This document shows, piece by piece, positions 1-39,064 of a stretch of DNA of 64,000 nt. Where the stretch lies: positions 1 to 64,000 of the forward strand of contig LGRX02009947.1 of NCBI GenBank assembly GCA_001247695.2. Direction: 5' to 3'. The notes beneath the pieces are model-generated. The model saw only the letters and a list, made by a program, of their open reading frames with translations. It made no database searches and was not told the origin of the DNA. The stretch comes from Cymbomonas tetramitiformis. Taxonomy: Eukaryota; Chlorophyta; Pyramimonadophyceae; Pyramimonadales; Pyramimonadaceae. The translations under genes and the position numbers were made by a program. Each line of letters opens with the position of its first letter. The stretch's first letter is position 1.

Positions 1-2705
1 TCTCTAAAGGTTTCAGCAGCGAAAACCTTTCTGCAGAAGATTGCCAAAGAGCAAGGTCAACATCAACCGGACAAGAAAGAAACACATCTGCCTCAAGGAA
101 TGACAAAGCTTGACGTCTACGAAAAGTTTATCGAAGAGCTTCCAGCCTTTGGTTCTGAGAGATTCAAGGTCAGTGAGCCATATTGGTATACGATCTGGAG
201 AAAACACTTCAAGAGGCTTAAGTGTCCGAAGATTTGCAAGTTCTCGGAGTGCAAGATCTGCTCGACCGCAAAGCTTCACAAGCAAGTCGCCCCGGCCGAA
301 ATGAGAGGTATGTTAGAAAGAAAACCCACTCTTGTTCATGAGAGGTATGTTCAGAAAGAAACCACTGCTTGTTCATACACGTGACCACTTACCTGAATGT
401 GTTTGCGTTGCAGTACGAATCGAAAATCTTTTGCAAGCTCATCGACTGGATGCAAGGGCTGAACGGGAGAAGTACTACAAACACATTCAGAAATCCAGCG
501 CAGCAAAAGGCAACGCGAAGTGGTGGAAATATACTACCATGATCATCGATGGCATGACACAACGTACCACACATTTGCCTCACTTTCGTCGAATGCCCTC
601 TTGGGTCAAAGACAATAAGGCATTGATAGATACCCACTGCATGGGGATACTCATCGAAGGCATCGGTCGTTTTATGGAATTCAATTTCAGTCATAACTAC
701 TCAGACAACTCGAACTATCTTGCGAACGTCATACAGCGGGCAGTAGCACGAGTTCATGAGCATCGACGATCGGGTGGGCATCCGTTACCGGAAGTATTGT
801 ATCTACAATTGGACAATGTAAGCAGCAATAAGAGCCACTTCTTAATTGCTTATTGTGCCATGCTGGTCAAACGTGGGGTATTCCGCAAGGTGAAGATCAA
901 CTATCTGATCGTGGGACATACACACGAAAATATCGATCAGATGTTTTCAAGGTTTTCTGTGGCTTTGAGGAGGCTGAACGTTTGGGACATCGAGCATTTG
1001 ATGGAGGTGGCTAGGAACTGCTTTAAGGATGGAGTAGTTCCGGAATGTCAACTGATCGATGAGGTGCACGATGTCAAGGACTGGATGCATGGATGCTATA
1101 ACGAAGTGCGCGATGTCAGCTTCCAACATGCTTTCAAGATTTTTCTGGCCCCACAGGCGACGTGTTAGTGCAGGCGAAACGTTATTCATTCGATCCAGTC
1201 TGGCTTCCAAAGGAAGGTGGGGTGAAGGTATTTAAGAGCAGCCTGCCCGAGGGCTCACCATGCTTTGTCGAGCCTAAATCCATTAACGAATTGAGCGCAC
1301 GGAAACAAGCGAAGCAGCTTGCGACTTCCAGGAAGTCTACGAGCAATCCATTGAAAGAGATCGAGGATCTTGTCGTTCAATGCAAGAGGAATCTTTGCTT
1401 ATGCATTCGAGGTAAGCACTGCACTGCTAGCGATTACGATTTGATTTGTCATATTTCAAATGTAAGTGGCCTTCTTAGTTTCTCGGGTTATGTTTTGCAG
1501 ATGTCGCAACCACCGAGGAGGCGGAGCGGCTTCAATTTCTAGCCAAGCGCGCAAATACTTTTCTTGAAGGGTATGTTCAAATGCAACGTGACATTGCGGC
1601 AGGAACGTTCGAACTGAAAGAGAAGACATTGTGGGTGCTGCACGAGGCTCCCTTTGAGGTTACTGGACCCATGATGCCTGTTCCTTCGGGTGCTTTGAGC
1701 GCGAACGGGCGAGATGCGGAAGTACTGATTGTCGATGAGCCAATGGCTGATACGAATGATATTGAACGTGGATACACGGATGCACAACTGGCTGATTACG
1801 TGCAGGGCCTTCGGGACTCCGTAGCGGTTCACGTGCGCCCAGTACCTCGTCCTATCTACATCGGGGCACAAAAAAATACCATTAGAAGACGAGCTCGAGA
1901 TCATCTTGCGCAATACATTCTGGGAGAAACTGACGACCCGGACTACGATGTGAGCTACAGCAAGATGAAGAAAGGTAGCATGGCTGTGTTGATTGCTCCC
2001 GAATCCGAGAAGACTGCCCGGACGGAATACCCGTTTCGTATCGCTCTGGGAAGGAGCCGAGGATGGTCGAGATATCTGTACCTTTGTGAGGTACAAGAGC
2101 AGCTGCTAAATGAGAAAGGTGAGAAATGTTTGTTGATGTGATTGCGCGCGCAACCTGCTTTTAACATCACAACGTTTTATGTCAATCTAATATCTCTTTA
2201 TCTTCTTTCTGGTGCAGGAGAAAAATGTTTGCGGTGGTTGACTTGTGGTACATTTAAGCTCACGAGCGCCTCCCAAAAGGAGGCCCAGAATGCAGACTCC
2301 CGGCTTTCGAAGGAGAAGGCATCGAAACCTGAAAGTTTCCGGCTGCATCAACGTACCAAGCAGGTGGCGCCGTATACACCAAGCGAAGTATTAGTAGCAT
2401 GGGACTGGGACACGGAAGAGGAGCGCCGAAAGATCAATGCAAGCACACAGCGATGGATCCCGGGTGAGCAATATGACTTGTTGGTCAAACGAGTCATCGC
2501 CAGCGACATGTCAAAGAGCTTTGAGCCGCCCGAGCATAGAACACCCAAACTCTTACTGCGCGACGCAATCATGCCATTAGAGGATAAAGAGGATAAAGAG
2601 GATAAAGAGGATAAAGAGAACGCGGAGGCTGAAGAGGGTGAGAGTTCGGACGAGGAAGCCTCTTTGTCGTCCTTGTCCGATGATGACGACCAGATGTGTG
2701 AATAA
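1..2705 (+). CDS. DUF7869-type protein, 5' end outside window, multi-exon
   Basis: The reading frame is open to base 1, so the gene starts upstream. My exon model is 1-307, 414 to about 1156, about 1157-1411, 1501-2118 and 2218-2705; the introns (308-413, 1412-1500, 2119-2217) all begin GT and end AG and keep frame. The central part has LQLDN followed by VGHTHENIDQMFSRFS, the signature I associate with DUF7869, a family common in algae, oomycetes and invertebrates and suspected to be RNase H-fold/transposase-related. The N-terminal part has a Cys/His cluster (CPKICKFSECKIC); the C terminus is a Lys/Glu/Asp-rich acidic tail with four DKE repeats. Around 1150-1160 the frame changes by one base with no convincing intron, so the copy may be frameshifted or the assembly has an indel. 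The function is not established, and no terminal repeats were recognised around it. Confidence 0.65.
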
Positions 2706-3935: not shown

Positions 3936-4322
3936 TGGCCAGGTATATGTCTTTCTTGAGCAGGATTGCCTTGCTATCATCCTGGCCACAAATTCTTATC
4001 CACCTGTGAATTCTGTGTGCCCGCAGATGATGACACCAAGCTCCTCGCACACACATCGCGGTGCATTGGCTACTTTGAAGAGGCACACGTAGAATAATAA
4101 CAATAAGAATAACACATAGACTTCGATATGCAACGAGGTTGTGTCATTGTGAGATGACCTTTTGACAATAGTAGGGTGAGATTTGTACTTTTTATGTAAC
4201 ATGTCTTACGTTGGTTTGTAAAATGTCACGCATTATAAAGCCTGCCTATATCTTCATCAGCATTCATTTCTCGCTTTCGCTCACGATAGACCCCACCTCC
4301 TACCAGTGAGCGACACACCCAG
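3936..4322 (+). promoter_or_regulatory. Duplicated 3' flank, then TATA and leader for the 4323 gene
   Basis: 3936-4030 repeats the 3' flank of copy 1. TATAAA lies at 4234-4239, and the family leader (TTCATTTCTCGCTTTCGCTCACGAT ... CACCTCCTACCA, 4264-4303, given here in two pieces) precedes the ATG at 4323. No gene is seen between. Confidence 0.5.
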
Positions 4323-4919
4323 ATGCCAGACTACTACATTGTCCTTTTCCGTTTTGTGCTTCCCGCCATCCGGGAAAGACGCCGTTCCCGCGAGGAATGC
4401 TTTTTGCACGCATGGGTAGAAGAACGATTTCTGTGGGCCCTTGAAACACGAGTACGCATTACATGCCCCGATATCCCTGGCACATTTACCTCAGAAATCA
4501 TTGTGTTTCCTGTGACACTTGCGCGGTTTTTTTTTCATCCTCGGAGAATTGTGAACGACGACGTCGGCGGCTTGAGAGTCAATGAGGCGTCCTACTTTAA
4601 TCGGACTAGCTGGATTTCCGGTATGAATTTGTATCGCAGTTTTAACGAACTCCACCGACGGTGGTTATATGATCACCATTGGGCCTGGTGCAACGGTTGG
4701 TTTCGCAACCTCCTTGACTATGACGCTGATGGTAACGAATTCGTCTATGATCGTGAATACGACCGGCCCTGTTGCGCTGATTGCGGAAGGTCAGATTCAC
4801 TTGTTATGCGAGTGACTTACCCACATCGATACATATGTGTCGACCGCGCGAGTTGCGAGTTCTGGCAGGATACCGATGATACCGAAATCCCAGAGTTGCT
4901 GTCCTCCGACTCCGACTAA
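4323..4919 (+). CDS. Small-gene family B copy 1, hypothetical protein
   Basis: 198 aa, single exon, unrecognised. The ATG follows the shared leader. N terminus: MPDYYIVLFRFVLPAIRERRR, then HAWVEERFLWALE, a YDHHWAWCNGW block in the middle, and near the end CCADCGRSDS with a later RYICVDRASCEF, which looks like a four-Cys metal site. The C terminus is acidic (SSDSD). A close paralogue on the minus strand shares RFLWALE, HWAWYNG and the C..C...C pattern but is split by the transposon at 6058-17275, which makes this intact copy the reference for that insertion. Function unknown. Confidence 0.65.
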   Translation: MPDYYIVLFRFVLPAIRERRRSREECFLHAWVEERFLWALETRVRITCPDIPGTFTSEIIVFPVTLARFFFHPRRIVNDDVGGLRVNEASYFNRTSWISGMNLYRSFNELHRRWLYDHHWAWCNGWFRNLLDYDADGNEFVYDREYDRPCCADCGRSDSLVMRVTYPHRYICVDRASCEFWQDTDDTEIPELLSSDSD

Positions 4920-5559: not shown

Positions 5560-6057
5560 TCAATTCAAATCAAGACGAGTCATCCGCCGACAGTCGACAA
5601 GGTCAGTGCAGATGTACCCGTCGCCAATACGGGTAAGATCCATATCAACGCGTCGGCATCGACTGCAGGCAGGCCTCATAGACAACTCGTACCGCGACGG
5701 GTAGATCCATTGAGGATCTGCATGCTCGTTGTAAAAGCCGTTGTACCAGGCCCAATGATATTCACGAAGCCATCGTTTTTTGAAGTCGTCGAAATCGATG
5801 TAGTCTAGCCGGAATCTGAAGTTGTTTGACATGCCAGGTCCTTGCCAATGGAACCCTTCATCGTCGTAATATGGGGCTTCAAAGTTGGAGGTAGGGAATA
5901 TCTGCAAGAAATTTCCCCAATCACGAACATCCCCCCAATCGACTTCGAGCAGATCACGTAATTCATAGAAATAGTGAGCCAAAGTTACAGGCATCCAAAC
6001 ATCACCAAACATGCCCGAAAACGTCAAAACTTGTTCTTCCAACGCCCACAAAAAACG
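5560..6057 (-). pseudogene. Family B copy 2, 3' part, split by the MULE-like element
   Basis: Minus-strand frame beginning at the codons for RFLWALEEQVLTF and running to a stop near 5560. It aligns with residues about 35-190 of the 4323 protein (RFLWALE, HWAWYNG, C..C....C..C). The start of the gene lies 11.2 kb away at 17276-17386. The join is exact: the 9-bp CAAAAAACG is present at both ends of the element, and using it once gives RFLWAL as in the intact paralogue. The insertion therefore inactivated a gene that was open at the time. Confidence 0.75.
6049..6057. repeat. 9-bp target-site duplication, left copy
   Basis: CAAAAAACG here and at 17276-17284, immediately outside the element ends. 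A 9-bp duplication is typical of Mutator-like elements. Confidence 0.85.
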
Positions 6058-7402
6058 CATTCTACACATTTGGGGAGTTTGGGAGTTTTGGGAGTTGGGG
6101 AGTTTTACAATGGGAGGCCCTGAAAAAACTGAAAATTTGACCGAATCTAGGGTTTAAGAGTTTCCCGAGTGGAATGTAATTTTATTTAATTTTCCGGTTG
6201 TTTTAGGGTTTAAGAAATATTCCTGATTTTCAATAAAAAAATCATCTTTTTCAGCCTGAAATAAGGAAGGTTTATGGGGTTTTTGTGTTAAGAAAACATA
6301 AATTTTCAATTGAAGTTCTACAATATTTTACGCCTTTTTAAGCTTCAAAATTTTTTCGAAACTCGGTAGCAAAATGATACTTGATACGTCTGATTTTTAT
6401 GAAATATGTTTTTGGGGGTTCATCGATGAACCCCTTTTTTTTTCTTCTAGTTTTATATGAATTTCAGGCCTTTTTGGGTTTTGGGGTGTTTTACAAGGGG
6501 AGGCCCTGAAAAAATTGAAAATTTGACCGAATCTAGGGTTTAAGATTTTCCCAAGTTGAATGTAATTTTATTTAATTTCCCGGTTGTTTTAGGGTTTAAG
6601 AAATATTCCTGATTTTCACTAAAGAAATTATCTTTTTCACCCTGAATTAAGGAAGATTTATGGGGTTTTTTGTGTTAAGAAAACATAAATTTTTAATTGA
6701 ACTTGTACAATATTTCACGCATTTTTAAGCTAATTTATTTTTTTTGAAAATCGGTAGCAAAATGATACTTTTTACGTCTGCTTTCATGAATTATTTTTTG
6801 GGGGGTTCATCGATGAACCAATATAATTTTTTTCAGTTTTCTATGATTTTCAGGCCTTTTCGGCGTTTTTTTAAAATTTGAAAATTTTGGAAAAAACCCA
6901 GAATTTTTCTACACTTTCAGGAATATCTTTGGTTGGCTTTGTTCCTATTTTATGGGGGTTGCCCCGTTTTTCCCCCTTATTTCAGGCATAAAACAGCCGA
7001 CTACCGCTAGGTCACCAACTCCAGTTACGACGCGCGCCCGGACTTCTCTTAAATACCGAAGAACACGGACAGAAAAAATTAAACACGCAAACACTTAAAC
7101 GCTTTGGACGCTTGTACTATTCACTAGATTAGAACGCTTGTTCACGTAAAATATAAAGCTTCAAATCAATATTCAAAGCAAAGTTACCGGCGCGCATGTT
7201 TTGCCTCCAGAGTTTAACACGACTTCACCCTTTCTTGTGCCCTTCGCCCCATCGCCTACTCGTCTTCGTGCATTGACCAACTACGTTCTCCATTGGTTTT
7301 TCACGTGCTTTCGCGGACCACTACTAACCACAAGTCCCGGTGGCCGGCCCCCCAGTTCGGTTCAAAACATACTTCTCGCCAAGATCCCTAACTAACTTTC
7401 AC
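6058..7402 (+). repeat. Left terminal inverted repeat with two internal subrepeats
   Basis: About 1,345 bp, inverted relative to 16131-17275. It contains two tandem units of roughly 370 bp (about 6100-6470 and 6485-6850), each with GAGGCCCTGAAAAAA, ATCTAGGGTTTAAG, a CGGTAGCAAAATGATACTT block and the palindrome GTTCATCGATGAAC. Bases about 6895-7160 have no partner in the right repeat. The inner part (7195-7402) matches the right repeat almost base for base. Confidence 0.85.
6418..6818. repeat. Two GTTCATCGATGAAC palindromes in the left TIR
   Basis: Copies at 6418-6431 and 6805-6818. The first is embedded in GGGGTTCATCGATGAACCCC, a 20-bp perfect palindrome; the second has GGG only on its left side. 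Confidence 0.9.
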
Positions 7403-7519
7403 ATTATCCCTGGACACTCAGTCGCATATTTCCCAATGTGTGGTACCTGTGGAAAAACAATTACGTTAGTCCAAAGCCCAACAAACCGTGCAAACAACAA
7501 TGTCGCTTTCGTACCTGAG

Positions 7520-10500
7520 TTACTGCTCTTGAAAGGTCAAGGCCCCAGCTCCAAGCCGTTGTTCCCTAGTTAGTGACAACCCATGTGCCACAACCAGGTC
7601 CGTAGGTGAAGGCGGTACATCACAGTAGTTGGGCAATACCGTAGCGCAACACTGGTGGAGAAGACAGAATTGAAACTTGTGGTTTACCCACTGACCATTC
7701 ACCTTGCGCCGACCCATGACCACCACCCTTGGGCCATCCTTTGAAAGGATGGGCTGGGATTGCTTGTGGGTCTTCGCTGTCACGCAACCCTTGCGGGACT
7801 CGGAGGCCGCGCATCTTGCTTTCCTACCGGTACCGGGCACCACCATCCATTGCCCGTAGGCCAGTTCCTCACTCCCGACACGATCGCCGGTGGTGAGGCG
7901 GGATCCCAGCGCCGTTAAGATGTCGTCGATCTCCTCCGTGGTAAACCCCGATTGCACGTAAAATGCATGTCCAGGTTTGAACCCCGCGCGGAATAGGAGG
8001 GTGGACAGGCACAAGCAAAGCTTCACCGAAGTCGACCTTCCCACGCGAGTCATCGTTTGGCGCCATGAGTAGCATGAGCAGCTGATGCGTTGTTGCGCCG
8101 CCCGGGCCAGATGACCAAATATCACCCGCGAGGGTTCACCTCGACCAGAGGACAAGGTGTAACTGCGGTCCAGGAAGCCGTCGTGTCTTCCACGTGCGGT
8201 TAAACGGACGGTGGGTTGGCCAACCTGTATCACTTTCAAGCGCTTGTCGGGCTGCAAGAACATGCGAGCCAACATTTGCGCGTGGCCTTTCGTGGTGCTT
8301 GTCTGGTACCGCACCTCGTCCAAAGACCCGACGGACACGCGGCGAGTGTCCACGTAGCGATGTTCGGAATGAAAGTGCACCGCGGTCTCCAAATATTGCA
8401 CCACGAGAGCCTCGTCCACCTCTTGGGAAGACTGCCAAACATAACGGGCGGCCGGGTCCTCGGTGTTTGGGTCGAACTGCCATTGGAACTCCAAAGGGTT
8501 CTCGAGGCATGCCCGCACCAACTTGATGGCCGGAGTCGGCGTTCCAGGCTCGTCGATCGTCACCCTAGTCTTAGTCCTCTTCCCCATCGATCGGACTTGG
8601 TTTGGTCGGTGACTGCGTGTCTCCGTCGTCACTGGACCAGGAGTGACATATATTTCACGCACCTCCTCAAGGACGTCGTACGCGGTGTGGCGTGCGCGTT
8701 GCATGGCGGTGTACACCCTTCGCCGCTCATCGTAGAGGGTGTTCGTGCGGGAGTCCCGCTGGCTGTGGCCACCTTCTCCTACGTGCTCCAACCAGGCGGA
8801 CTGAGTGATGTACGTCACGTTCTCCAGGTGCAAGAACTCGGAGGCCGGCAGATTCACGCCGATCAGTTTGCCGTCCTTGGAGAAGAGTTGCTCCGCCGGG
8901 TTAGCCCCTTTGCTTTGTGTGAAAAGCTGCAGGGTGCGTTCGCCTTCACCTTCGTAAAATAAAACGAGCGAAGACAAAGAGGATTGCACGCTCTTGCTCT
9001 CTTGCTCCATGATGAAGTCGAAGAGGCGCGCACGTGCGTCCATCACACGTCTGGGGGCTTGTGCTTCGTACCACCGTGTGAACAGTGTCCGGAACTGGGT
9101 CTCCTCGAAACTCTTGTCCAAACACCGAGCGTGTATCCCCATGTTCGCAACGAGGTGCAAGTCACAGCCTTTCTCCAACGAGTTGCCCGCCTCGTCCCGC
9201 GTCATGTACTTCTTTCGGTCCTCCCGGCGCATGAACTTGTTGTAGTTCAAGCGGATGCCGATCCAGCCTCCGCCACCCGCGTCACGGACGAAACCGACGG
9301 GACGAAAGCAAATCTCACCTTTTGGGTTGGTCTTTACCCAAACCTCCTTGTCTCGATATTTCGCGAAGTCGGCGTCCTCCATGGCCACCGTCCGGCAAGC
9401 GTAGTCGATGCCTTGCCACATCTTCTCCTCATCCACACCGCGTTCACCCGCCGGCAGCACGAAGGTTGCTAGTTTTATCAACCCAATTCCGGGCACGACC
9501 GTTGCAACCTTCTCGACAACGCGACCGTTAATGCAGCTGTGGCCACCATCAGAACATGCGTAGCAACCGATGAACGGAGGCTTGCCGAGAATGCGGTCCA
9601 TCAACAGCATGATCTTCGCGGGGGACCACGGCAAGTCCAGGGGGCACATGAACCAGTTCAGAGGTGCGGTGTCGAAAAGAAGAGTACGGTATCCCTTTGA
9701 GTCTAGGATCCGTTTCATTTCCTTGACCTCGTCATCAGCAGCACGCTCGGGGGCACGTTGAGTCGCACGGTGTTCTTTCATCACGTCGCGGACGGCGCGA
9801 GCGTCTTGCATTTCGCGGGCCACCTAAAATGGAACCATGCATTAAGAATAACATGTCCCCGACGTATAACGGAAAGGTAACACAAAAATAGGGCGATACC
9901 TTGTACACGTCGATGGGAGAGCCGTCCGGAGAGGAAAGCATCTTCTCGAAGGCAACCGTTGTGGCGGAGTTCTTCAGCTTCTCGGAAGTGAAGCGACCAC
10001 CGAAAACGGGAAGGGCTTCTTTGATGGCGTCTTGGGTTTCTTTGGAAACAACGGCCTTCCCCTTTTTATCCATGGGTTGGCAGGCATGGGTGCCTTCGTG
10101 TCTAAAGAGCAGTAGGTGGCCTTCGGCTGCGGGAAGGTCGATGCGGACCAAAGTAGCCCGGGCACCACAGGTAATAACTTCCATGGGTTCTTGACACTTT
10201 TTGCATGGAGGGCCTTCAATCTGAAAGAAGAAAAGAAAAGCGTAAGGTCCTACTGGAAAAGTGGGGAAAGTGTACGGGAAAACCTTGGGATTAAAATACC
10301 TCAACGCCGAGGAAAGCGGAAGCGGAGCGTTTGCCACGTTGTTGAGAACTTGTCTGAACGAACTCTTTGTCATGGGTTTTAAAGAAAGAGCACTCCGTAT
10401 TCCTGCAAAGTTTTTCTCCAAGGCAGTTTTGAAGTCGAACTTGAGAGTTGCAGTCCTTGACAGCATCTTGTCGGGTTACCTCCGCCCAAGTTGTGGCGCA

Positions 10501-11097
10501 GGCGTGGGACCAAGAACGGTTCGTGACATGGAAGTCAAGTTTGTTCAGCGGTAGACCGCCCTTCCCGGTTGGTTTAGGAAGAGGTGAGGACATGTGGTGA
10601 CCAAAAGTTACATTGCCATCGACGTCGAAGGGGACCTTGTTCACACGTTTGCAATCTGCGGGCCACTTAAAAGAAGAGGCGTGACTGGAAGTCGAGTCGG
10701 ACTTGGAAAGGTTTGTCGAAGCGACGGACTCCGTGGGCTTGGGCTTCGTGTTTGGTGAGAACCGGGGAGTCTTGCACTCGCCGGTGTAAATAATGTCTTC
10801 TTCATCATCGCTGTCATCGCTTTCGCTGTCGCTTACCAAGATTGGCATGTTGTCGTCGGTAGGAGTACCGTACACATTGTGCAAGAAGCCCGCGTGAACG
10901 GGAAACAGGTCCAAAGAGCAAGCAACGGAGTCATCGTACTCGGAGGTGACGGAAAGATCTTCTTTCTTGTCAAGACTAAAAACATTGCAAAGTGTGTCGC
11001 TAGTCACAAAAGGGTCTCCAAGATGCCAAACAATAGGAATTTCACGAACGACATCCCCGGTTTCAAGGCAGCGAAAAGTAACAAATTGAGTGGACAT
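7520..11097 (-). CDS. Mutator-like transposase, three exons, 1140 aa
   Basis: Exons 11097-10300, 10220-9900 and 9823-7520 (lengths 798, 321 and 2304, all multiples of three); introns of 79 and 76 bp start GT and end AG. ATG 11097 is the first in-frame methionine (MSTQFVTF). Exon 1 has an acidic Ser/Asp tract and two Cys (CRNTEC); exon 2 has PPCKKC and later FRHEGTHAC, forming a C..C/H...H.C finger like the WRKY-GCM/FLYWCH fingers at the front of MULE transposases. Exon 3 (residues 374-1140) should hold the DDE core (a possible first Asp in TLLFDTAPL, then FVLPAGERG, and a GCDLHL stretch where MULEs have C..H) and near residue 955 a CSCYSW...KLCLCL SWIM-like motif. It would cut and paste the element through the terminal repeats. 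The catalytic triad is inferred, not aligned. Confidence 0.65.
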
Positions 11098-11548
11098 TGC
11101 ATTAGCCCTAGGAAGTCGGTAAAATAAATGCACTCCCGAAGTGAAAGTGTCGAGGAGAGGCCTTAAAAAACTCTAGTCGCCAAAATAAAAGGCGACGCCG
11201 AAATAAAATCGAGTCGAGGCGACGGCTGGGAAATTTTCGAGTCGAGTCGAGAACGACACCGACCAAACGAGTCTAGCTGTTTCGGAAAGAGAGGCGAAGG
11301 AAAAAATCGAGTCGAGTGTCGAGTCGAGGCGAAACCTTCAAAATATTCGACTCGAGGAAACGCTTTGAAAATTTAAAAAAAAATATCGAGGCGAAAAAAT
11401 ATCGAGTCGAGAACGACACTGACCAAAGGAGTCGACGTGTTTCGGAAAGAGAAGTCGAAGAAAACCTGAAGACAGTTGAGAGCTAGTAAAGAACTCTAGC
11501 CGCCAAATAAAAAGCGCAAAGATTTAAAGTCAAAAGAAACAAGCAAAG
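11098..11548. promoter_or_regulatory. Shared divergent promoter region with GTCGAG repeats
   Basis: 451 bp between the two divergent start codons. GTCGAG/GAGTCGAG occurs many times, and a longer block (GAGAACGACAC, GACCAAA, GAGTC, GTTTCGGAAAGAGA) appears twice, near 11241-11295 and 11409-11452. Such direct repeats between divergent genes are candidate binding sites for a shared regulator. No clear TATA box was identified. Confidence 0.5.
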
Positions 11549-14500
11549 ATGCCTGCAAAAAAAGGAACCACCAAGAAGTCCGGGGATGGCAACACGGAAA
11601 GGTTGGTTTACGCGGACGTGATGGAACAGCGTTTCGTTGAGCAGAAAGTGCTGAAGCTCGCGGACTGCTCTTTCGCTGACAACCCAAGAGGACACAATCA
11701 CAACGGTGTCAACGTGGAGAAGTCCGTTGAGAAAAACGGCATCGACCTTTCCCAAACCATGATCTGGCGCCGCGCCAAAAAAGGAGATCCTAAGGCCCAC
11801 GGGTAAGTTTCACTAAACCTTCTTGAAGAACTGCGCTGACAAAAGGTAGAAGAGACAAGTGTGAAAAAGCGTTCATCGATGAACGCTTTTTAAAAAACAC
11901 TGCTAAAGAAACAAGTGTTTTAACAGGTTTAAAGAAAAGTGTTCATCGATGAACGCTTTCTTTATTTTGTTTCTGAAGCTTGAGTATTTTAAACTGTTTT
12001 TAAGAAAGCGTTCATCGATGAGCGCTTTTCTTAGTTTTCCTTGTATTTTTCCTAAAACTTTGCGGTTTGGAGTTGCAAAAGCTGCGATATTTCTGTGTGA
12101 TTCAGCTTTTTTCTCAGGAAAAATACAAGGAAAACTAAGAAAAGCGTTCATCGATGAACGCTTTCTTAAAAAGAGTTTAAAATACTCAAGCTTCAGAAAC
12201 AAAATAAAGAAAGCGTTCATCGATGAACACTTTTCTTTAAACCGGTCAAAACACTTGTTTCTTTAGCAGTGTTTTTTAAAAAGCGTTCATCGATGAACGC
12301 TTTTCTTATTCAGCAAAAAAAGGTTAGTGCTTGAACTCTTCTTGGTTTTGCATGGTGACTTTCTTCTTGTTTATTTGCTGTTCACCTGCAGGTCTACTGA
12401 CTCCCTTCAGGACTCTTGCTCCTAAAGTTTTCTTTCTTGTCTTTTAATTTGTTGCAGAGATCTGTTTAAAGGCGTGCGCGCCTTTCAAAGAAGACGTGCA
12501 ATGAACCGAGAAGCTGAAAGAATTAGGATCAACAAAGAAATTACTAGACGTAGGCGTTGCATTTTAGACAGGGGGTTTTAAGCTAGTGTTGCTTGAAGAT
12601 GTTACATCCTCAGAAGATGAGGAAGATTCTTGCAGGAAGAACCATGTTCCCATTAGCTGGTATAATGTTCCAAACGTGGCAGTAGCTAAGAGGAGACTCA
12701 AGAATAAAAAAGACGCTGAGCGAAACGCAAAAATACGTAGGACGCAATGTCCTTTGTGGATGCTAGACAGCCAGTGGTAGCTTTAGCTGAAGTAAACACT
12801 TTATATATTTTTTTATAAATAGTTTCTCTAACACTTTAACCCATGTTCTTTGTCGTTTTAAATGGCGTGCTGTGTTTGTTTTTGTTTTCAGTAAGCGGTA
12901 CATTGCCATTGACGGACATGGTAGGCACGAGTTTTTCACTCGTGCCTTCCAAGATGGCGCCGTGGTAGGCGGAAAAAAACTAGAGGCCCGGGACAAAAGG
13001 TTTCTGGAATGCAACGTCATCGTGGTGTCGGAGGACATCACCAAGGAGGAGGTTACATGCCTCGCCCTCTCGCGCATCGTCCAGAACGAGAAGGGGTCCA
13101 AGAAAAAAACTTTTTTCGACGACTACACCTCCTTCAAATGGCTGATGTCATCCATTGACAAGACCGTGGCCAAACCACAGAAGTTGGTTGTTTTGTTCTC
13201 TCACATCGACCCTTCGTTATACTCGTTGATGTTCTTCAAGAGGATGGCCCACATCCACGAAAAGGTGATCGGGCCCGACGAGCGGCTGGAGGCCTTGCTT
13301 CGCGAGAACTGCGAAGCTTTGGGGAAGGATTCCCCCTTCGGCTTCAACTCCTTGTTCGACAACAAGGAATTCCAACGTCTTAATCCGACACAAAGATATC
13401 AGGTACGGTGGAAGCCGGTCTTTATTTTATTGTGTTACATGCAACCATCACGCCTGAAGACAAACACATGTCTCAGGTTTTCCTGAAAGTGAACGAGAAC
13501 GTCAAGTTCGCCGTGAAGGACGAGAATGGCGAGCTCCACTTGAAGAAGAAGAAGCAATGCGCGACTTTGGGCTTCGTCGGAACCACACGCGCCTTCACGG
13601 ACTTGTGTTCGTTTGTGCTGCTTCGTCAAGAAGTCCGCTCACAGCTAGAGCTTCAAAGCTCTAAGGGGAAGGCGAAAAAAACTGAAGAGGCGTCCAAGTT
13701 CTTGGAGGACCTGAGCGCCGGAAAGTAAGTCCATCTACCACGGTTTGGTTAAAGCCGTGAACTATTTTTTTATGCGGAAAGGTGATGGGTGTTAAACTTT
13801 TGTTTACAGGTACGATGGTACTTTCTTCGACGCCAACGAGACTTGCTCCAAGACCAGTAACTTGCCTCGCTTGAACCGGGATGTCGAGCCGAAAGTCGTG
13901 CAGGACATGCTGAAGAAGCACAACGAGATGGTTGAGTGGGAGGAGACTGCTGTGGAGGCTCAGGAGAGTGGCGTCGAGACCCTTGCGGAAGTTGCAGCTG
14001 GTGAGACGGGTGGGGATGTTGAAGAGGAAAAGGAAGAGACGCAGGAAGGTGCGTCGGTTGGGGATGATGACGAGGTAGGCGATGGGGATGAGGAGGTAGA
14101 AGGTGAGGAACCGGTTGGTGAGGAAGATGGTCAGGAGAACGAGGAGGAGGAGAACGAAGAGGAAGAGGAGGGCGATGAGGAGGGCGATGAGGAGGAGGAT
14201 GGAAAGTTTGACTTTGAAAAGGAGTCGGATGAGGTTCGTGAAACACGTGAAGATCGGAAGCGGAAGAGACAGGAAGTGGCGGATTGGTTTGCGGCGGAGG
14301 ACGCGGGGGAACATGTCCCAAAATCAAAGAAGCAGAGAAAGGATCTAACTAAGAAGAGGGCGGAGATGGGGAAGCTACGTCAAGAGTTGCAGGCCTTTGA
14401 GGAGGAGGATGCCGCTTACGCGGCTTGGCTTAGCGACAAGGAGAAACAGAAGGATGAGCAGGACATGGAGGACGACCCGGCCCCCTGCGCGGAATGGATG

Positions 14501-16116
14501 AAGCCTTGGGTTGGGGTGTCGCGAGGGAACCCGGACTACGAAGGGTTGCGACAATGGAAGATGGCAGGCGGAACGCTCCGAAATGGAACGCAGCAGAAGG
14601 GACCGGTGAAGGAGAGCATTGAGATTGGGCAGTTCTTGAAGATGAATGAGGAGGCGTTGAAGCCTGGTGTACGGCATCATGTGCACAATATTGTGTCCGT
14701 GGAGGTGCCGAAGGTGGTAGCGGTGAAGAACCGTGGCGTGACGCGTGGCACGAAGGTGAAGGATGAGAAGGTGGAGTACGTCTTGGAGTTAATCCATCAA
14801 CACGGACATGCCGAGTCTGAGAAGTTGTTGGTGTTGACATCGGTTGCCATGAACTCCCAAGGCATCCCGCTGTTGCAGCTGTACTTCGGCGAAGCTCTCG
14901 GGGCCATGGACGTCATCACGCACAACGCGGCGGAAGATAAGTTTTGTGTGGCGGCGGTCATCACGGATGTTCCGTGGGGCCATGAGAGCAAGACCGGGTA
15001 CAACACGAAGGTGGATTGGGATGCGTTCGCAGTCAAGTTGGACGAGCTGTGCGCGAACAACGATGGCATGTCGGAGGTTCATAAATACGCCGATCTGGGA
15101 AAGGTGGACGGAGACACCATTGTGTGTGCCTTAGGCGACAGTGAAGCCCTTCGAGCTTTGGAGGCGGGCTGGAAGGCGTTGAAGCACCCGGTAGGATCGA
15201 TGTAACACTTGTTGCTTTGAAGGCACCCTTTTATTTTTGTTTTTTTGTTACGTTTCTTAAAGGGAGGGAAAAGGGGGGAAGGATCACAGGTGTACAAGAC
15301 AATGCCGGGGTACATCGTGACGGAGGGGAACCGCAACAACGCGACTTTCACGAACACTCCAAAGTCCGTGGGACACCAGTACACGACTTTTGCACGGAAG
15401 CTGGAGGCTCCGAAGTTGGACTTCAAGACCAGCATCCAAACCAGGGGGCAGCAATGTAAGGACCTTGACTTTGATTATTTCCCGCTGAATTGTTGGACTG
15501 GAAACATTTTGCGTGCCCTAAGTTACCAAGAGGTGAAGGCTTTTGAGAAGGCCTTGGAAAAGCACCTGGCTGAGAGCTGGGAACCAAGCTGGAAGGAAAT
15601 GGATGAGGAGCAGAGGATGGACATCGTTCAGACCGAGGTAGAACATCAGGCACGACCTTTCCAAGCTGTTCAAGTGCAGGATACCTTCAAGCACGATTGC
15701 GCCGTAGTGGGATGCTTGAAGGGCGGTAAGCCCTGCGAAGAGCATGGCAAGACCTTGGTGGTGGGACAGAAAAAGGTGGAGCTCATGGAGCTGTTGGTGG
15801 AGCGGTACACAACCGACATCGACATGGTGGTGCTGGACCCGTTCATGGGAAGTGGTGCGTGTCATTGTGGATGCATTGGTTTTGCCGCGAGGGACACGCC
15901 GGGGTATTGAAAGATGTTAAGTGTTCCGCAGGAACCACTGGGATTGGAGCGCTTCGCATGGGACGCGCCTTCATCGGCGTGGAGAGGAAGCGTGCAAACT
16001 TCATTAGCGCGGTGCACTATTTATCTCACGCGGTGTTCTGCTGCGCGAAGCGCCATGTGGGGGATCTTGGATTGAGTGAGCCGTACCGGAAGATGAAAGT
16101 GACAAACGTGAAGTAG
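11549..16116 (+). CDS. ParB-like domain fused to amino-type DNA methyltransferase, six exons, 1047 aa
   Basis: Exons 11549-11802, 12892-13402, 13477-13724, 13810-15190, 15290-15854 and 15932-16116; all introns are GT-AG and phases agree (3,144 nt in total). Residues about 30-130 form a ParB/Srx-like domain with the NPRGHNH box (45-51) and IDGHGRHEF (91-99), domain halves that meet only when the long first intron is removed. Residues about 378-480 are very acidic, followed by KRKR and KSKKQRK nuclear-localisation-like motifs. The catalytic part has ITDVPWG (D724, motif IV position, DVPW instead of DPPW/DPPY) and DPFMGSGTTG (981-990, motif I), in the order IV then I, followed by GRAFIGVE. A C-x4-C-x6-C-x2-H cluster lies near 934-953. 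ParB-MTase fusions are known from phages and prophages. Whether the product is N6-adenine or N4-cytosine methylation cannot be told; the altered motif IV may reduce activity. Confidence 0.8.
11866..12303. repeat. Large inverted repeat with six palindromes inside intron 1
   Basis: Arms of about 188 bp (11866-12053 and 12116-12303), nearly identical, around a 62-bp spacer. GTTCATCGATGAAC lies at 11871, 11941, 12146, 12215 and 12285, with one variant (GATGAGC end) at 12010, all in AAGCG/GCTTT-type surroundings. Each arm thus has three evenly spaced palindromes. The transcript could fold into a long hairpin, and the DNA into a cruciform. Confidence 0.85.
12458..12780 (+). other. Unassigned coding-like segments inside intron 1
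   Basis: After a good acceptor (TTGCAG, 12457) the exon 1 frame stays open for 40 codons of very basic sequence (AFQRRRAMNREAERIR) to TAA, so an alternative transcript could end here as a short ParB half plus basic tail. A second open stretch (12586-12780, LLEDVTSSEDEEDSC ... CPLWMLDSQW) follows. Neither fits the phase of the next exon. They could be a degenerate exon, an alternative 3' end or nested debris. Confidence 0.3.
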
Positions 16117-16130
16117 AACATCGAAAGTTC

Positions 16131-17275
16131 GTGAAAGTTAGTTAGGGATCTTGGCGGGGAAAGAAGTATGTTTTGAACCTAACTGGGGGGCCGGCCACCC
16201 GGACTTGTGGTTAGTAGTGGTCCGCGAAAGCACGTGAAAAACCAATGGAGAACGTAGTTGGTCAATGCACGAAGACGAGTAGGCGATGGGGCGAAGGGCA
16301 CTAGAAAAGGTGAAGTCGTGTTAAACTCTGGAGGCAAAACATGCGCGCCGGTAACTTTGTTTTGAATATTGATTTGAAGCTGTATATTTCATGTGATATA
16401 TAAATATAAAATATTCCTGAAATTGCAAAGAAATCGGGGTTTTTTGAAGAAATTTCAAAAAATTTAGAAAAACCCCCAAAAAGGGCATATAAAACTAGAA
16501 AAAATAAAAGGGGTTCATCGATGAACACCCAAAAACATATTTCATAAAAATCAGACGTATAAAGTGTGATTTTGCTACCGAGTTTCGAAAAAAAATTTGA
16601 AGCTGGAGAATGCGTGAAATATGGTACAAATTCAATGGAAAATTTTTGTTTTCTTAACACAAAAAACCCCATAAACTTTCCTTAATTCAGGCTGACAAAG
16701 ATGATTTTTTTAGTTAAAATCAGGAATATTTCTTAAACCCTAAAACAACCGGGAAATTAAATAAAATTACATTCAACTCGGGAAAATCTTAAACCCTAGA
16801 TTCGGTCAAATTTTCGATTTTTTCAGGGCCTCCCCTTGTAAAACTCCCCAACACCCAAAAAGGCCCGAAATTCATATAAAACTAGGAAAAATAAAAGGGG
16901 TTCATCGATGAACCCCCAAAAACATTTTTCATAAAAATCAGACGTAAAAAGTTTCATTTTGCTACCGAGTTTCGAAAAAAAATTTGAAGCTTAAAAATGC
17001 GTGAAATATTATACAAGTTCAATGGAAAATTTATGTTTTCTTAACACAAAAAACCCCATAAACCTTCCTTAATTCAGGCTGAAAAAGATGATTTCTTTCG
17101 TGAAAATTAGGAATATTTCTTAAACCCTAAATCAACCGGAAAATTAAATAAAATTACATTCCACTCGGGAAAATCTTAAACCCTAGATTCGGTCAAATTT
17201 TCGATTTTTTTAGGGCCTCCCATTGTAAAACTCCCGAACTCCCGAAACTCCCAAACTCCCCAATTGCGTTTGGTG
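16131..17275 (-). repeat. Right terminal inverted repeat
   Basis: About 1,145 bp, inverse of 6058-7402. It contains two tandem units (about 16480-16840 and 16850-17220), each with CGATGAAC palindromes, the CTAAACCCTAAA-like words and the GGGCCTCCC block. It begins 15 bp after the methyltransferase stop, so the gene's polyadenylation signals probably lie in the repeat. Confidence 0.85.
16513..16913. repeat. Two GTTCATCGATGAAC palindromes in the right TIR
   Basis: Copies at 16513-16526 and 16900-16913, in the same relative places as the left pair. Confidence 0.9.
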
Positions 17276-17386
17276 CAAAAAACGTTCTTCGACCCATGCC
17301 TGCACAAAGTATTCCTCACGCAATTGACGCATTTTCCGAATGTAAGGAAGAACAATCCCAAACAGGACGTAATGAGTATCCGCCAT
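17276..17386 (-). pseudogene. Family B copy 2, 5' part, split by the MULE-like element
   Basis: ATG at 17386 (MADTHYVLFGIVLPYIR) and a frame through HAWVEERFL-like residues (QAWVEERFL) to the 9-bp target duplication at 17276-17284. It matches the first 40 residues of the 4323 protein; the remainder is at 5560-6057. The frame then runs into the terminal repeat and ends after about 30 unrelated residues. Confidence 0.75.
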
Positions 17387-17399
17387 TCTTGATAATGCA

Positions 17400-17671
17400 A
17401 AGATGAAGCGGTGTGTCTTCCAGGAAGAAATGGAAAATGATCCTCCTAAAGGCCTCAAGCGATTTAAATATTGCCAAGGAGGGCTTGGGCCTCTCAAGGT
17501 AAATGCCGCAAACCAATAGGATGAAACCAACAATCACAAGATTGGCCAAGATAAGATTGGCCAAGATAAGATTGGCGCGGACAAATGTTGGCCCAAGATT
17601 GGCGCGGATTGCGAGTTCTGGCAGGATACCGAAGTCCCACAGTTGCTGTCCGACTCCGACTCCGACTAAGG
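17400..17671. other. Intergenic: 18-bp repeats and 3' scrap of a family B gene
   Basis: ATTGGCCAAGATAAG is repeated in tandem (about 17541-17580). Bases 17605-17670 (GCGAGTTCTGGCAGGATACC ... CCGACTCCGACTAAGG) match the last codons and stop of the 4323 gene, so a third family B copy has been reduced to its 3' end. Confidence 0.5.
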
Positions 17672-24447: not shown

Positions 24448-27400
24448 GTGACAAAATGCGTGAGAACGACTGTTGAGGAGTGCGCATACCTTTTTGTAGC
24501 AGGGGTGCACATCGTGGAAGGCCACGTGAAGTTCACCGTGGTTCGGGATGATCGACGTTGGCTACTAGGGCAGTTATGTGGAATCATGCATGTCATTCTA
24601 GCTATGAGCGTCTTTTTAGCTTTGTGCGGCTCAGACGCGAGCTACAATCCTGGACCAGACTGGGATATCCCGCCAATTCTTATGGACTTGCTACCTCTTC
24701 TAGTAGAAGTAGGCGACTCCGCACGCACCATACCTCTTGGAGTGTGGCCCCTACCGCAAGAAGCTATGCCGACGCTTCGACACTTGGTTACCAAGTTGGA
24801 TTCGGTGTGCGATATTTGGGCATCTGCACGAGCTGAGGCGACTTCCACGCCCTTGCGCAATTGTCAGATTCCTGACAGCTCAGACAAAGAGGAATGTTCT
24901 TCTCCAGACGAACTGGACACTTCGCGCGAAGTGTCCAAAGGAGGGATAGAGGGGCAAGAAGATGGTTTGCGTCGGTCGCTGACACGTCACGAAGTTGACA
25001 GACCACAGGAATACACGCCACTGAAGCGAGGAAACAGGAACCACTGGATAGGGAAGATGAGCGAGATTTTTAGTAGGTCCCCAAACCGCATCGCTTCAGC
25101 GGTGAGGGGGTACATTGAAACGCTGCCAAAGGAAGTGGCAGTAGGTGTACTGCAACGCTGTCGCGCAGCGTTGTTCGGTGATACAGAAATGGCGAAGACC
25201 AAAGCTATGGACTGCATTCTAGAAAACCTGGTTGCGGTCTTTGGGGCGCTGTCGAGTAGGAATTCTAACTTGAACGAGGAGCACAAGCTTGCAGTGGCGG
25301 CCGCAGTGTTTGGCGAGAACATGCAAGAGGGGCAAGTGTTAACCGCAGCGACAACAATGTTAGGCGTGCATAAGCGTGTAGGATATGCGGGCATCACGGG
25401 GCATAAAAACATGCTGGCGGGTGCGAGGGTGGGCAATGCCGAGCGTGCACGAAGGAGCTTGCACGTGGGTGTGACGCGCCCCAAGCGACGTGGGCGTCGT
25501 TCAGTGTGCATGGCGGAAGCCACTTGTGCACTCATCCGCGACTTTTGGTTGCACCCGGACAACACGCGCGTGAGTCCTTGTAAGAAGGACGTGGTGTTGG
25601 CAAGAGATCCACACACGGGGAAGCTTAAGACGCCCCGTGAGTACGTTAGCAAGCATTGGCTTGAGGCTTCGCAACTAGTGGTGTACCGGAGATTTGTGGC
25701 GAAATATCCAAGCGTGAAGGTGGGGCAAAGGTCGTTTGAGAAGGCGGAGTTTGCAAACCGCACAATGTGGTACGGTTGACAAGAAGGGACAACATCTCTT
25801 GTTGTTGTAGGTATCACGAGGACATGCGCATGGTGCTTAAAGGGTTCGACGAAGCACGGGAGGCGGTGCACAAGAAGTGCCCGTGCAAGGATAAGAAGTG
25901 TTGCCCCCGAGTGCCACGGACGGCGGAGGAAAAGAGGGAGAGCGCGGTGGGTGCGCCGACGGGGCAAGTGTGTGGCATCGTGAAGGCGGGGAAGTCTACC
26001 TCCACGTTCGCGGAGAGTCTGTTGTGCCCGCGTGAAGGGGATAAGCACCGCATAGAGTGCCTGTTGCAAACCTGCAAACAGTGCGGAGGTTTGAAGAACT
26101 TTAAAGTGTGCGAGAAGGAGGTGCAATATGCGGAGGAGGTGAGGTGGTCGTGCTATGAGACTCTGAGTACGGGCAAGTACGACGACGAAGGGAAAGAGGT
26201 TAGGAGGTTGCAGTTTTTGCAGAAGAAGACGAAATTGGGGGCGTTGATATCTAAGCTGCAAACGTTGTTGCTGGGGCACGAACCGGGGAAGTCGCCAAAC
26301 TGTCGGTGCAATGGACGCTTTCTGTGCGAGGACGCGGCGTCGGAATCGTGGAAGTGGCGGAGGCTAAATGGCGTCGGGGACTGCCCGTTTTTGCGTCCCT
26401 ATGCTTACCATACATTCATGGCCTTGCACCAGCACCGTCAATTTAAGACGTGTATCACGGATTTGCCGTTGGGGCATACGGCGTGGTGTTTCGACTTCTC
26501 CGAGAACCATTCGTTGAACATCCCGAGGGAAGTTCAGAGTTTGCACTGGGTGGTGAAGCAGGCTACTGTGTTGGTGTGTGTATTATGGCGGCACGCGTGC
26601 AAGGAAGTCGATGGGGTAGAGTCCACGGCGGAGAACCCGGTTGTGATAAAGGACTATGTGTACTTTATCAGTGATGACCGCAAGCATGATCACAGATTCA
26701 TTCAGTACATGCGAGAGGTGATCATCAAGGAGTACTTTGAGAAAAGGGGGATTCCGAAGCCAATATTTATTCACGAATGGGCGGATGGTTGTGCGGGGCA
26801 GAACAAGTGCGCGGCGGGATTCGCGGACGTGGGAAACAGCAAAATGGAATGGTCGCTGGGGATTCCTTGTCAGCGGAACTTCTTTGAGACGGCGCATGCT
26901 AAAGGGGAGCAGGACGGAGCGGGGGCACACGTGAAGCATGCAGCGGCGGTGGCGGTAATTTCGGAGGGTGACAAATGGTATGGGAAGATCTTGTGTGCGG
27001 CCGATCTCTATGCTTTTTGTGTGGAGAGGTTGCGCACACGCGCGGACACCAGCTACACGAAGTCGAGGGCCGCATTCAATCAACGATTTTTTTATCTAGT
27101 TCCCGAGGACGCGACGAAAGAGGTGGCGGGAGGTTTGTCGGCGGTTGATCACACGGCGCGCATCGCATACAAATCTTTGGAGCGCACTTTGCAACTGCAT
27201 TCGGTGCGATCGGGCGTGGAGGGGAAGTTGCTGGTGCGCGACAGGACATGCTATTGCGTGTCATGCTATGCAGAATGTGTGTCGTCCATGCCGACGTCCG
27301 AGAACTGTTTGGAGAGCTCGCATGTGGATTTGTGGAGGGAGGTGGAATTGACGCCCGCAACGGGTGCGGACGCGGCAAGGGTGCGGGAGTTGGTGGAGGA

Positions 27401-27761
27401 GTATGCGAGTGATGTGAGTGTAGCGGTGCGGCGCGGATGCATCATCGCGGTCCACCGAGACCCGGCGGACCGCACACACGCCTACTACTTGGTGAAGGCG
27501 TTATCCGCCGTGACGGAGGTTGGACCTAGGGGGCGCCGAGATGACTATGGGCAATATTTTGCCCCGGGAGAATTTGTGGTTTCGGGGAGGTACTTTGAAT
27601 GGGAAGATGCCGATGTGAGAGATGACTACATACTAGACACAAGTAAAAAGTGCTTGATCTCTTGTGAAGCCGTGCGTGCAACCGATGTGCGCCTAGTTAA
27701 AAGAGGGGATGTGTACAAGATGCCTGCTGCCGAGCATGAGCGCGTGTTATCACTGTTGTAA
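24448..27761 (+). CDS. Putative transposase of the second element (one frameshift)
   Basis: Two overlapping frames, 24448-25760 and about 25752-27761. Homology logic places the shift in the TTT at 25750-25752: one more T would join FEKAEF to CKPHNVVRL. The product is then about 1,100 aa. Motifs: SCCCRYHEDM, Cys clusters CPCKDKKCCP, CLLQTCKQCG and CRCNGRFLC, HEWADGCAGQNKCAAGF, and FFETAHAKGEQDGAGAHVK. The last two resemble a widespread uncharacterised family of algae and invertebrates (..DGC..Q.K.. then H.KG..DG.G..VK) which I take to be an RNase H-like transposase; that is inference. The start codon is uncertain. It lies divergently from the PHD gene across the satellite. Confidence 0.55.
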
Positions 27762-38735: not shown

Positions 38736-39064
38736 TCACTCACCGTTAAGAAAACAGGGATTTTCGGCCAGCCAGCCGTACTCATCCCCCACCCCCCCGC
38801 CAGCGTCAGCGTCATAAGAGAACTCGAAGAATAGTAAGCCAATTTCTTTCAATCAGCCAGCTATTTTCTTAAATTTTCATTGATAAACGCTTAGAACGGC
38901 CATAATTTCAGGAAAAATCGCCTGCGGCGCCAGCACAAAGGTTGCTTATTTCGGGAATTTTCTTAGCCGAAAAAAGCCAGCCAGCCGTACTCATCGAGTT
39001 GGGTACCCCCCCCCAAACGCTGGCTAGTTTCTTAACGTCGGGTTTTCTTAAAGGTGAGTGATTA
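38733..39064. mobile_element. Tc1/mariner-type miniature element, about 330 bp
   Basis: Inverted ends ATCACTCACCGTTAAGAAAA (left) and, inverted on the right, ATCACTCACCTTTAAGAAAA, each next to TA. Internal tracts include CAGCCAGCCGTACTCATC twice. With one TA kept, the methyltransferase frame reads straight through into the integrase frame. Confidence 0.75.

What the first reader, a model, noticed from the sequence alone, without database searches (positions are those of the whole stretch)
6058..17275. DNA transposon carrying a ParB-like/DNA-methyltransferase fusion
Seen directly: an 11.2-kb element with 1.1-1.3 kb terminal inverted repeats, 9-bp target duplications and two divergent multi-exon genes. 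One gene is a plausible Mutator-like transposase. The other splices into a 1047-aa protein with a ParB box (NPRGHNH, IDGHGR) and an amino-methyltransferase signature (DVPW, DPFMGSGTTG). ParB-MTase fusions are known to me from phages; eukaryotic elements with TET/JBP or C5-MTase passengers are known, but I know of no MULE with a ParB-MTase. The presence of introns shows long residence in a eukaryote. Possible role: marking or masking transposon DNA against host silencing or during excision.
Basis: partly seen in the sequence, partly recalled or inferred. Interest (0 to 1): 0.95.

Follow-up and report, generated by a model that had tools for sequence, protein, structure and literature searches.

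The report
Algal transposon with self-marking DNA methylase
A jumping DNA element in the green alga Cymbomonas carries, beside its transposase, a gene for a predicted DNA-methylase that would likely bind a regularly spaced array of short palindromes inside the element and mark the element's own DNA; the same pair of genes and the same roughly 68-base spacing recur in four other element families of this genome, which makes a proposed way for jumping genes to control their own silencing directly testable.

Summary
Window 6058-17275 is a DNA transposon of Cymbomonas tetramitiformis: 9-bp target duplications, TIRs of 1.1-1.3 kb, and two divergent spliced genes, a transposase (1140 aa) and a ParB-like/N6_N4-methyltransferase (1047 aa). 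All 10 further copies fetched (about 99% identical) hold both genes. One locus from each of four distant families (methyltransferase about 31-35% identical to the window's) carries the same divergent pair, and the two proteins diverge in step. My reading: the protein is delivered to its own element through this array and methylates it, as an anti-silencing or marking device. Not shown: DNA binding, methylation, expression. The ParB half rests on motifs; profile tests failed. MULE membership is likely, but PF10551 did not match. ParB-methyltransferase genes in algal transposons are already in print (Ectocarpus Sola1 element, citing green and red algae), so this is a new variant; I found no report of the phased array.

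The parts
6049..6057 (.). left 9-bp target-site duplication CAAAAAACG
   Evidence: empty site restores an ORF
17276..17284 (.). right 9-bp target-site duplication CAAAAAACG
6058..7376 (+). left terminal inverted repeat region with two subunits about 387 bp apart; begins CATTCTACACATTTGGGG
16162..17275 (-). right terminal inverted repeat region; ends CCCCAATTGCGTTTGGTG
7520..9823 (-). transposase exon 3 (putative catalytic region with SDGGH, VRDxGGGGW and CxxH, named by eye; SWIM-like region; stop at 7520-7522)
9900..10220 (-). transposase exon 2 (with the end of exon 1, the region that aligns weakly to a GCM-type zinc finger)
10300..11097 (-). transposase exon 1, ATG at 11097
   Evidence: deposited as CYMTET_47173 with one residue changed
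11549..11802 (+). ParB-methyltransferase exon 1 (ParB-like box I NPRG)
11803..12891 (+). intron 1, holding the phased palindrome array
11871..12298 (.). array of 6 sites GTTCATCGATGAAC (5 exact, 1 with one mismatch), spacings 70, 69, 136, 69, 70 bp
6418..6431 (.). palindrome GTTCATCGATGAAC in left TIR, subunit 1
6805..6818 (.). palindrome GTTCATCGATGAAC in left TIR, subunit 2
16513..16526 (.). palindrome GTTCATCGATGAAC in right TIR
16900..16913 (.). palindrome GTTCATCGATGAAC in right TIR
12892..13402 (+). ParB-methyltransferase exon 2 (ParB-like box II IDGHGR)
13477..13724 (+). ParB-methyltransferase exon 3
13810..15190 (+). exon 4: acidic linker and methyltransferase motif IV-like DVPW
15290..15854 (+). 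exon 5: N6_N4_Mtase region up to DPFMGSG
15932..16116 (+). exon 6: end of methyltransferase (stop at 16114-16116)

Best explanation
This is a two-gene DNA transposon, likely Mutator-like, whose second gene is predicted to make a ParB-like/amino-methyltransferase protein that would be loaded on the element's own phased palindrome array and would methylate element DNA, likely to keep the element active or to mark it for its transposase. Shown: the element, its 9-bp duplications and many near-identical copies; the gene pair in one locus of each of five families, whose two proteins diverge in step; an array with a shared core and mostly 68-70-bp phase in the same intron of all five; low dN/dS of the last methyltransferase exon among the three closer families. 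Inferred: that the ParB-like part reads the array; that DVPW/FMGSG make an active enzyme, probably N6-adenine because motif IV begins with D; that the outcome is anti-silencing (VANC-like, or by writing the 6mA that marks active genes in related algae) rather than a transposition signal.
For: Both genes in 10 of 10 other copies fetched. A relative of the same transposase, divergent, beside the ParB-methyltransferase in 4 of 4 other family loci fetched. Identity tracks across the six pairs of families A-D: methyltransferase 71/74/59/74/60/58%, transposase 72/74/56/79/59/60%. NPRG, IDGHGR, DVPW and FMGSG are present in the window and A-D. dN/dS of the last methyltransferase exon 0.10, 0.10, 0.08 in the three pairs of A, B, C; transposase stretch 0.13, 0.16, 0.12. 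Array: 49 CATYRATG sites in five copies of intron 1 (6, 8, 12, 10, 13) against shuffled means of 0.03-0.11; 68 bp is the commonest spacing in A-D, 69-70 in the window; 5 sites elsewhere in the regions examined, 4 of them in the window's TIRs. Linkers: 0.68-0.90 alike within a family, 0.46-0.54 between families against 0.47-0.53 shuffled. Window palindrome: 10 sites in 64 kb, all in the element, shuffles at most 2. Methyltransferase: PF01555 45.5 bits, cutoff 26.7; DpnA and CcrM among solved relatives. Precedents: VANC proteins of VANDAL MULEs bind family-specific tandem repeats in noncoding parts of their own element (PMC10398659, passages); in the prasinophytes Micromonas and Ostreococcus 6mA marks the first nucleosomes of active genes (PMC12695648, passages).
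Against: No test ties the protein to the array. The ParB assignment fails every profile test: no Pfam ParBc hit, no PDB match, hhalign probability 0.1%, lower than the best of 60 column-shuffled controls at 0.6% (the ParB profile had 3 sequences, so the test is weak). Structure models failed (mean pLDDT 33.1 and 31.7). The methyltransferase frame is intact in 5 of 10 copies, the transposase in 10 of 10; 3 of the 5 broken ones share the loss of one A in an exon-2 run of seven, which may be an assembly error but was not tested. Motif IV is DVPW, not the usual DPPY/DPPW (recalled). Family D lacks perfect palindromes and keeps the core only. Linker likeness of A-B (0.54 against 0.49 shuffled) and A-C (0.53 against 0.50) is slightly above chance. 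B and D spacings are not all 68 (B also 61, 64, 125). Against the window dN/dS of the methyltransferase is 0.21 (B), 0.35 (C) or undefined (A) because dS saturates. Expression and methylation were not seen.
Confidence: 0.5

Rival explanations
1. The array and the TIR palindromes are binding sites of the transposase or of its zinc finger (synapsis or autoregulation); the methyltransferase is recruited by the transposase or acts on any nearby DNA.
For: In the window family the same palindrome sits in both TIRs, where transposases bind; transposase and methyltransferase co-diverge, so the array could track either. Family B has other 69-bp-spaced repeats in its TIRs.
Against: In A, B, C and D there are 0, 0, 0 and 1 CATYRATG sites outside intron 1 in the regions examined, and the one in D lies next to exon 2, not in a TIR; the array always sits in the methyltransferase gene.
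Confidence: 0.25
2. The array is a transcriptional or splicing control element of the ParB-methyltransferase gene (host factor sites or intronic enhancer), unrelated to what the protein binds.
For: It lies in intron 1, close to the 5' ends of both divergent genes; intron 1 is 1.09-1.15 kb in 4 of 5 families.
Against: Turnover of the palindrome arms between families with a kept core and phase fits an element-encoded binder that coevolves with its site better than a constant host factor (inference; not tested).
Confidence: 0.2
3. The methyltransferase is a passenger on its way to decay, kept by copying with the transposase, with no role for the element.
For: Frame broken in 5 of 10 copies, transposase in 0 of 10.
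Against: Low dN/dS at dS of about 1.5-1.9 among families A, B, C; four motifs kept in 5 of 5 families.
Confidence: 0.05

Closest known systems
Sola1-1_Ec32 of the brown alga Ectocarpus, and the green and red algal transposon genes cited with it (PMC12477816, section 5 read; its references 50 and 51 not seen)
   Same: A ParB-like plus N4/N6 methyltransferase protein of 1104 aa on the strand opposite the transposase; the authors already suggest such proteins may bind and modify their own transposon
   Different: That element is assigned to Sola-1 and is 21.5 kb; here the duplication is 9 bp, the element 11 kb with long TIRs and a transposase with a SWIM-like region. The section describes no palindrome array. 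Homology between the two proteins was not tested (sequence not at hand).
VANDAL/VANC anti-silencing MULEs of Arabidopsis (PMC10398659, abstract and passages)
   Same: Element-encoded extra protein; tandem motif repeats in noncoding parts of the element; motifs differ from family to family
   Different: The passages name no methyltransferase in VANC; here the second protein carries one and the array is in its own intron
ParB-CTPase-fold fusions, including phage ParB + N6_N4 methyltransferase (PMC12704722, abstract and passages)
   Same: Domain pairing by motif; parS, the ParB loading site, is also a palindrome (recalled)
   Different: No profile-level similarity of the N-terminal half to ParB here; no phage relative of that half found; 'transpos' and 'algae' occur 0 times in that main text
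TET/JBP-carrying fungal transposons (PMC12730594, search listing only)
   Same: DNA-modification enzyme as transposon cargo
   Different: A dioxygenase acting on methylcytosine, not an amino-methyltransferase

Membership tests
Mutator-like elements (MULE) | 8-11-bp TSD (PMC6446971, passages) | tested here: met
   Window 9 bp; of 8 copies with both ends, 6 perfect 9 bp, 1 perfect 8 bp, 1 with a mismatch; 2 of 2 copies of family B perfect 9 bp; family A none found; C and D not tested
Mutator-like elements (MULE) | Long TIRs, commonly hundreds of bp (PMC6446971, passages) | tested here: met
   1.1-1.3 kb in the window; inverted arms found in the other families: A 67 bp, B 296 bp, C 141 bp, D 154 bp
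Mutator-like elements (MULE) | MULE transposase profile PF10551 | tested here: not met
   No PF10551 hit for P0003, P0005, P0008, P0009, threaded B and C, or exons of A and B
Mutator-like elements (MULE) | SWIM zinc finger (common in MULEs, PMC6446971 table) | tested here: inconclusive
   CxC...CxH by eye in A-D, CxC...CxC in the window; no PF04434 match
Mutator-like elements (MULE) | N-terminal WRKY/GCM1-type zinc finger (common; recalled) | tested here: inconclusive
   Weak match to the GCM chain 1odh, E=0.0023
N6/N4 amino-methyltransferase (PF01555) | Curated profile above cutoff | tested here: met
   45.5 bits, cutoff 26.7; P0001 36.6, P0002 43
N6/N4 amino-methyltransferase (PF01555) | Motif IV (D/S/N)PP(Y/F/W) before motif I FxGxG, beta order (recalled) | tested here: inconclusive
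   DVPW then FMGSG in window, P0001, P0002 and A-D: right order, but V in place of the first P
ParB-CTPase fold | Significant ParBc or ParB profile match | tested here: not met
ParB-CTPase fold | Box I NPR and box II (G-x-x-R) in order | tested here: met
   NPRG and IDGHGR invariant in the 5 sequences of A4 and in family C; judged by eye, spacing not scored
ParB-CTPase fold | Nucleotide-dependent binding at palindromic sites | not testable with these tools
   -
VANC-type anti-silencing system | Family-specific tandem motif array in noncoding element DNA | tested here: met
   Five arrays, shared core, differing arms and linkers; B and C share arms
VANC-type anti-silencing system | Protein binds array and removes silencing | not testable with these tools
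   -

The most novel reading that the evidence does not exclude
A eukaryotic transposon runs a parS-like system: a ParB-like clamp loads on 68-bp-phased palindromes in its own gene, spreads along the element and delivers an adenine methyltransferase, writing a self-mark that exempts the element from host silencing; each family coevolves its own site, so families stay insulated from one another.
Probability: 0.3. Interest if true: 0.92.

Novelty: new variant of a known kind. Interest (0 to 1): 0.75.

Why it matters
ParB-methyltransferase genes on algal transposons have been noted, with the suggestion that they bind and modify their own element, but the section I read names no candidate site. 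Here one is named: a core (CATYRATG) and a spacing (about 68 bp) held across families whose proteins share as little as a third of their residues and whose linkers show little or no similarity. That turns the suggestion into a binding and footprint experiment, in a genome with many near-identical copies and a published nanopore data set in which 6mA/4mC could be called if the raw signal is kept. If true, it would be a mobile element that writes, rather than erases, a DNA mark on itself.

Tried and rejected
Structure route: AlphaFold2 on P0002+P0001 (mean pLDDT 33.1) and on the transposase set (31.7) gave unusable models; no fold search was run on them. Phage origin: tblastn of P0002 against phages gave 252 records, none covering 80%; the 20 listed rows match query residues 853-994 only; three regions looked at hold separate methylase genes. 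IMG/VR scans with A1 and A2 confirmed no relative (27 and 81 pattern matches). Protein searches: 2 hits for the methyltransferase, both Cymbomonas; with the alignment one weak hit annotated DNA modification methylase (P0010, 6% coverage); 7 for the transposase: four Cymbomonas, two unnamed contig proteins, one EukProt protein of unstated species (P0008, 34%). Each of these searches scored only about 8000 candidates sharing most words, so distant relatives would be missed. Hence I have no full-length relative of the fusion outside Cymbomonas, which is not proof that none exists.

Array as chance: rejected by shuffles. Array as mere tandem duplication: argued against by linker divergence between families. 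Array as one large hairpin: an inverted repeat is strong in the window (arms 189 nt, 98%) and in C24562, but A showed direct units whose only inverted matches are the palindromes, so a large hairpin is not the common feature. TSD for family A: none found (that script stopped on an error after the A test and two B tests). Copy counts: the genome search scored 40 of 418 candidates for the transposase exon and 44 of 4531 for P0002, so totals are candidates only.


Full report
What was checked first. The window lies in contig C7861 of an 852-Mb genome. Its transposase equals the deposited Cymbomonas tetramitiformis protein CYMTET_47173 (1140 aa) except for residue 502, so the host is this phagotrophic green alga. 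The element runs from 6058 to 17275 between 9-bp duplications CAAAAAACG; its ends read CATTCTACACAT...GTTTGGTG. Removing the element and one duplication gives a continuous ORF that aligns across the junction with a paralogous ORF at 4290-4919 of the window (35% over 205 columns, E=1e-24). The TIR regions are about 1.1-1.3 kb and each holds two subunits about 387 bp apart.

Genes. The minus-strand gene joins three exons into 1140 aa. The plus-strand gene joins six into 1047 aa with GT-AG introns. Splicing turns a marginal PF01555 match (22 bits) into a clear one (45.5 bits, E=1.2e-11, cutoff 26.7). Two deposited Cymbomonas proteins, CYMTET_5078 (P0001) and CYMTET_55414 (P0002), align over 98% at 32 and 31% identity, with the same order of motifs: NPRG, IDGHGR, DVPW, FMGSG. 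The first intron falls between NPRG and IDGHGR both in the window and in the locus of CYMTET_55414.

Copies. A genome search with the transposase exon listed 40 scored places, all printed as 100%, out of 418 candidates. I fetched ten with room for the whole element; their aligned pieces are 98.6-100% identical to the window's element. All ten hold both genes. Of the eight with both ends resolved, six have a perfect 9-bp duplication, C2479 a perfect 8-bp one, C19668 a 9-bp one with one mismatch; in C24604 and C70 one end was not resolved. The transposase frame is intact in 10 of 10. The methyltransferase frame is intact in 5 of 10 (C25080, C19294, C10425, C70, and C1680 with 1043 aa); C22056, C2479 and C19668 share the loss of one A in an exon-2 run, C24604 has an insertion of several hundred bases and C8382 a deletion of about 100.

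Other families. A search with CYMTET_55414 gave 185 matches from 44 scored of 4531 candidates; the listed ones fall into groups of about 100, 76-79, 71-72 and 59% identity over the last exon. I fetched one locus of each: A = C16527 (the gene of CYMTET_55414), B = C15249, C = C24562, D = C7715. In all four a relative of the window's transposase (21-51% identical in pieces) lies on the opposite strand, divergent, as in the window. In A and D the threaded transposase shows 1 and 2 stops, so those copies may be dead. Family B ends begin CATGTTACACAT or CATTTTACACAT against the window's CATTCTACACAT, and two of two B copies with both ends seen have perfect 9-bp duplications. For the six pairs among A-D, methyltransferase identities are 71, 74, 59, 74, 60, 58 and transposase identities 72, 74, 56, 79, 59, 60 (chains threaded on P0002 and P0003): the genes travel together. 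dN/dS for the last methyltransferase exon is 0.10, 0.10 and 0.08 among A, B, C; against the window 0.21 (B), 0.35 (C) and undefined (A); for a transposase stretch 0.13, 0.16, 0.12 among A, B, C and undefined against the window. dS is 0.8 or more throughout, so these are rough.

The array. In the window the palindrome GTTCATCGATGAAC occurs at 10 places with at most 2 mismatches (9 exact, 1 with one mismatch), all inside the element: two per TIR and six in intron 1; shuffles gave a mean of 0.24 and at most 2. All ten other copies hold exact sites in the same part. In the other families the intron-1 sites have other arms: GTTTTAACATTAATGTTAAAAC in A, TTTTGACATTAATGTCAAAA in B and C, and a core without perfect arms in D. 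The shared core is CAT(T/C)(A/G)ATG. Counted by script, intron 1 holds 6, 8, 12, 10 and 13 such cores (window, A, B, C, D) against shuffled means of 0.03-0.11. Spacings: window 70, 69, 136, 69, 70; A and C 68 or twice 68; B 68 in 8 of 11 (others 64, 125, 61); D 68 in 9 of 12 (others 69, 136, 67). Outside intron 1 the regions examined hold 4 (window, all TIR), 0, 0, 0 and 1. Intron limits in A-D are taken from tblastn exon ends, and the C and D regions were not trimmed to element ends. Linkers between cores (only those of spacing 60-72, 4 to 11 per family) are 0.68-0.90 alike within a family and 0.46-0.54 between families against 0.47-0.53 for shuffled letters; the largest excess is A-B, 0.54 against 0.49. 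So core and spacing are kept while nearly everything between turns over.

What it probably does. Three lines from the literature bear on it. VANDAL MULEs encode VANC proteins that bind tandem motifs in noncoding parts of their own element and remove silencing, with motifs that differ between families (PMC10398659, abstract and passages). ParB proteins load on parS sites and spread as nucleotide-gated clamps, and ParB-fold proteins fused to N6_N4 methyltransferases are frequent in phages (PMC12704722, abstract and passages). In the prasinophytes Micromonas and Ostreococcus 6mA marks the first nucleosomes of active genes (PMC12695648, passages; Cymbomonas is not named there). The element has matching parts: a family-specific site array and a ParB-like/methyltransferase protein. 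I infer that the protein is directed to the element by the array and methylates it, most simply to imitate active chromatin. Whether the mark protects from silencing, tunes the two genes or tells the transposase which DNA to use cannot be decided from sequence. The rival that the array serves the transposase is weakened by the lack of such sites in the TIRs of A-D, not excluded.

Limits. The ParB label is by motif only: Pfam, PDB profile search and hhalign against three solved ParB stretches all failed, the last below the best of 60 column-shuffled controls, with little power at this depth. The MULE label rests on duplication length, TIR length, a SWIM-like motif and a weak GCM zinc-finger match, with no PF10551 match. 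Structure prediction failed. Expression, splicing and methylation were not observed. Only one locus each of families A-D was read in full.

Prior art. [quoted passage not shown] Its two cited sources were not seen. The long-read Cymbomonas paper has no occurrence of ParB or methyltransferase in its main text. Ten library searches turned up no report of a phased palindrome array with these genes; only one search had words for such an array, I saw titles and abstracts of the listed papers and passages of a few, and the library holds open-licence papers only. Hence: new variant of a known kind, with the cis-array as the new part.

Noticed in passing
37758-38735 (+) and 39036-40754 (+): A C5-cytosine DNA methylase domain (PF00145, E=2.6e-9) just upstream of a Gypsy-like integrase ORF (Integrase_H2C2, rve): possibly a second mobile element in the same window that carries a different kind of DNA methyltransferase.
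   Followed up: partly
31310-35975 (+): Copia-type retroelement ORFs (rve, SH3_retrovirus, RVT_2).
   Followed up: no
317-1168 (+) and 25740-27761 (+): ORF with DUF7869 (E=3.6e-48), a domain of unknown function; the 673-aa ORF at 25740-27761 had no Pfam match at E<=0.01.
   Followed up: no
4290-4919 (+) and flanks of the element (about 5560-6057 and 17285-17530, minus): Two paralogous genes of an unnamed family without a Pfam match; the transposon interrupts one of them.
   Followed up: partly
10300-11097 (-), residues about 52-116 of the transposase: Sub-threshold SAD/SRA match (14.4 bits, cutoff 30.7) in the transposase N-terminus; SRA domains read modified DNA (recalled), which would be notable beside a methyltransferase, but the score is not significant.
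   Followed up: no
12422-12567: About 146 bp of intron 1 are left out of the alignment in 6 or more of the 10 other copies of the element.
   Followed up: no
L043/L044 (family B TIRs): TIRs of family B hold a different repeat (ACCTCAATACTAACGCAGC...) spaced 69 bp, close to the intron-1 period.
   Followed up: no
53001-54947 (+): Protein kinase ORF, 648 aa (Pkinase E=1.1e-51).
   Followed up: no
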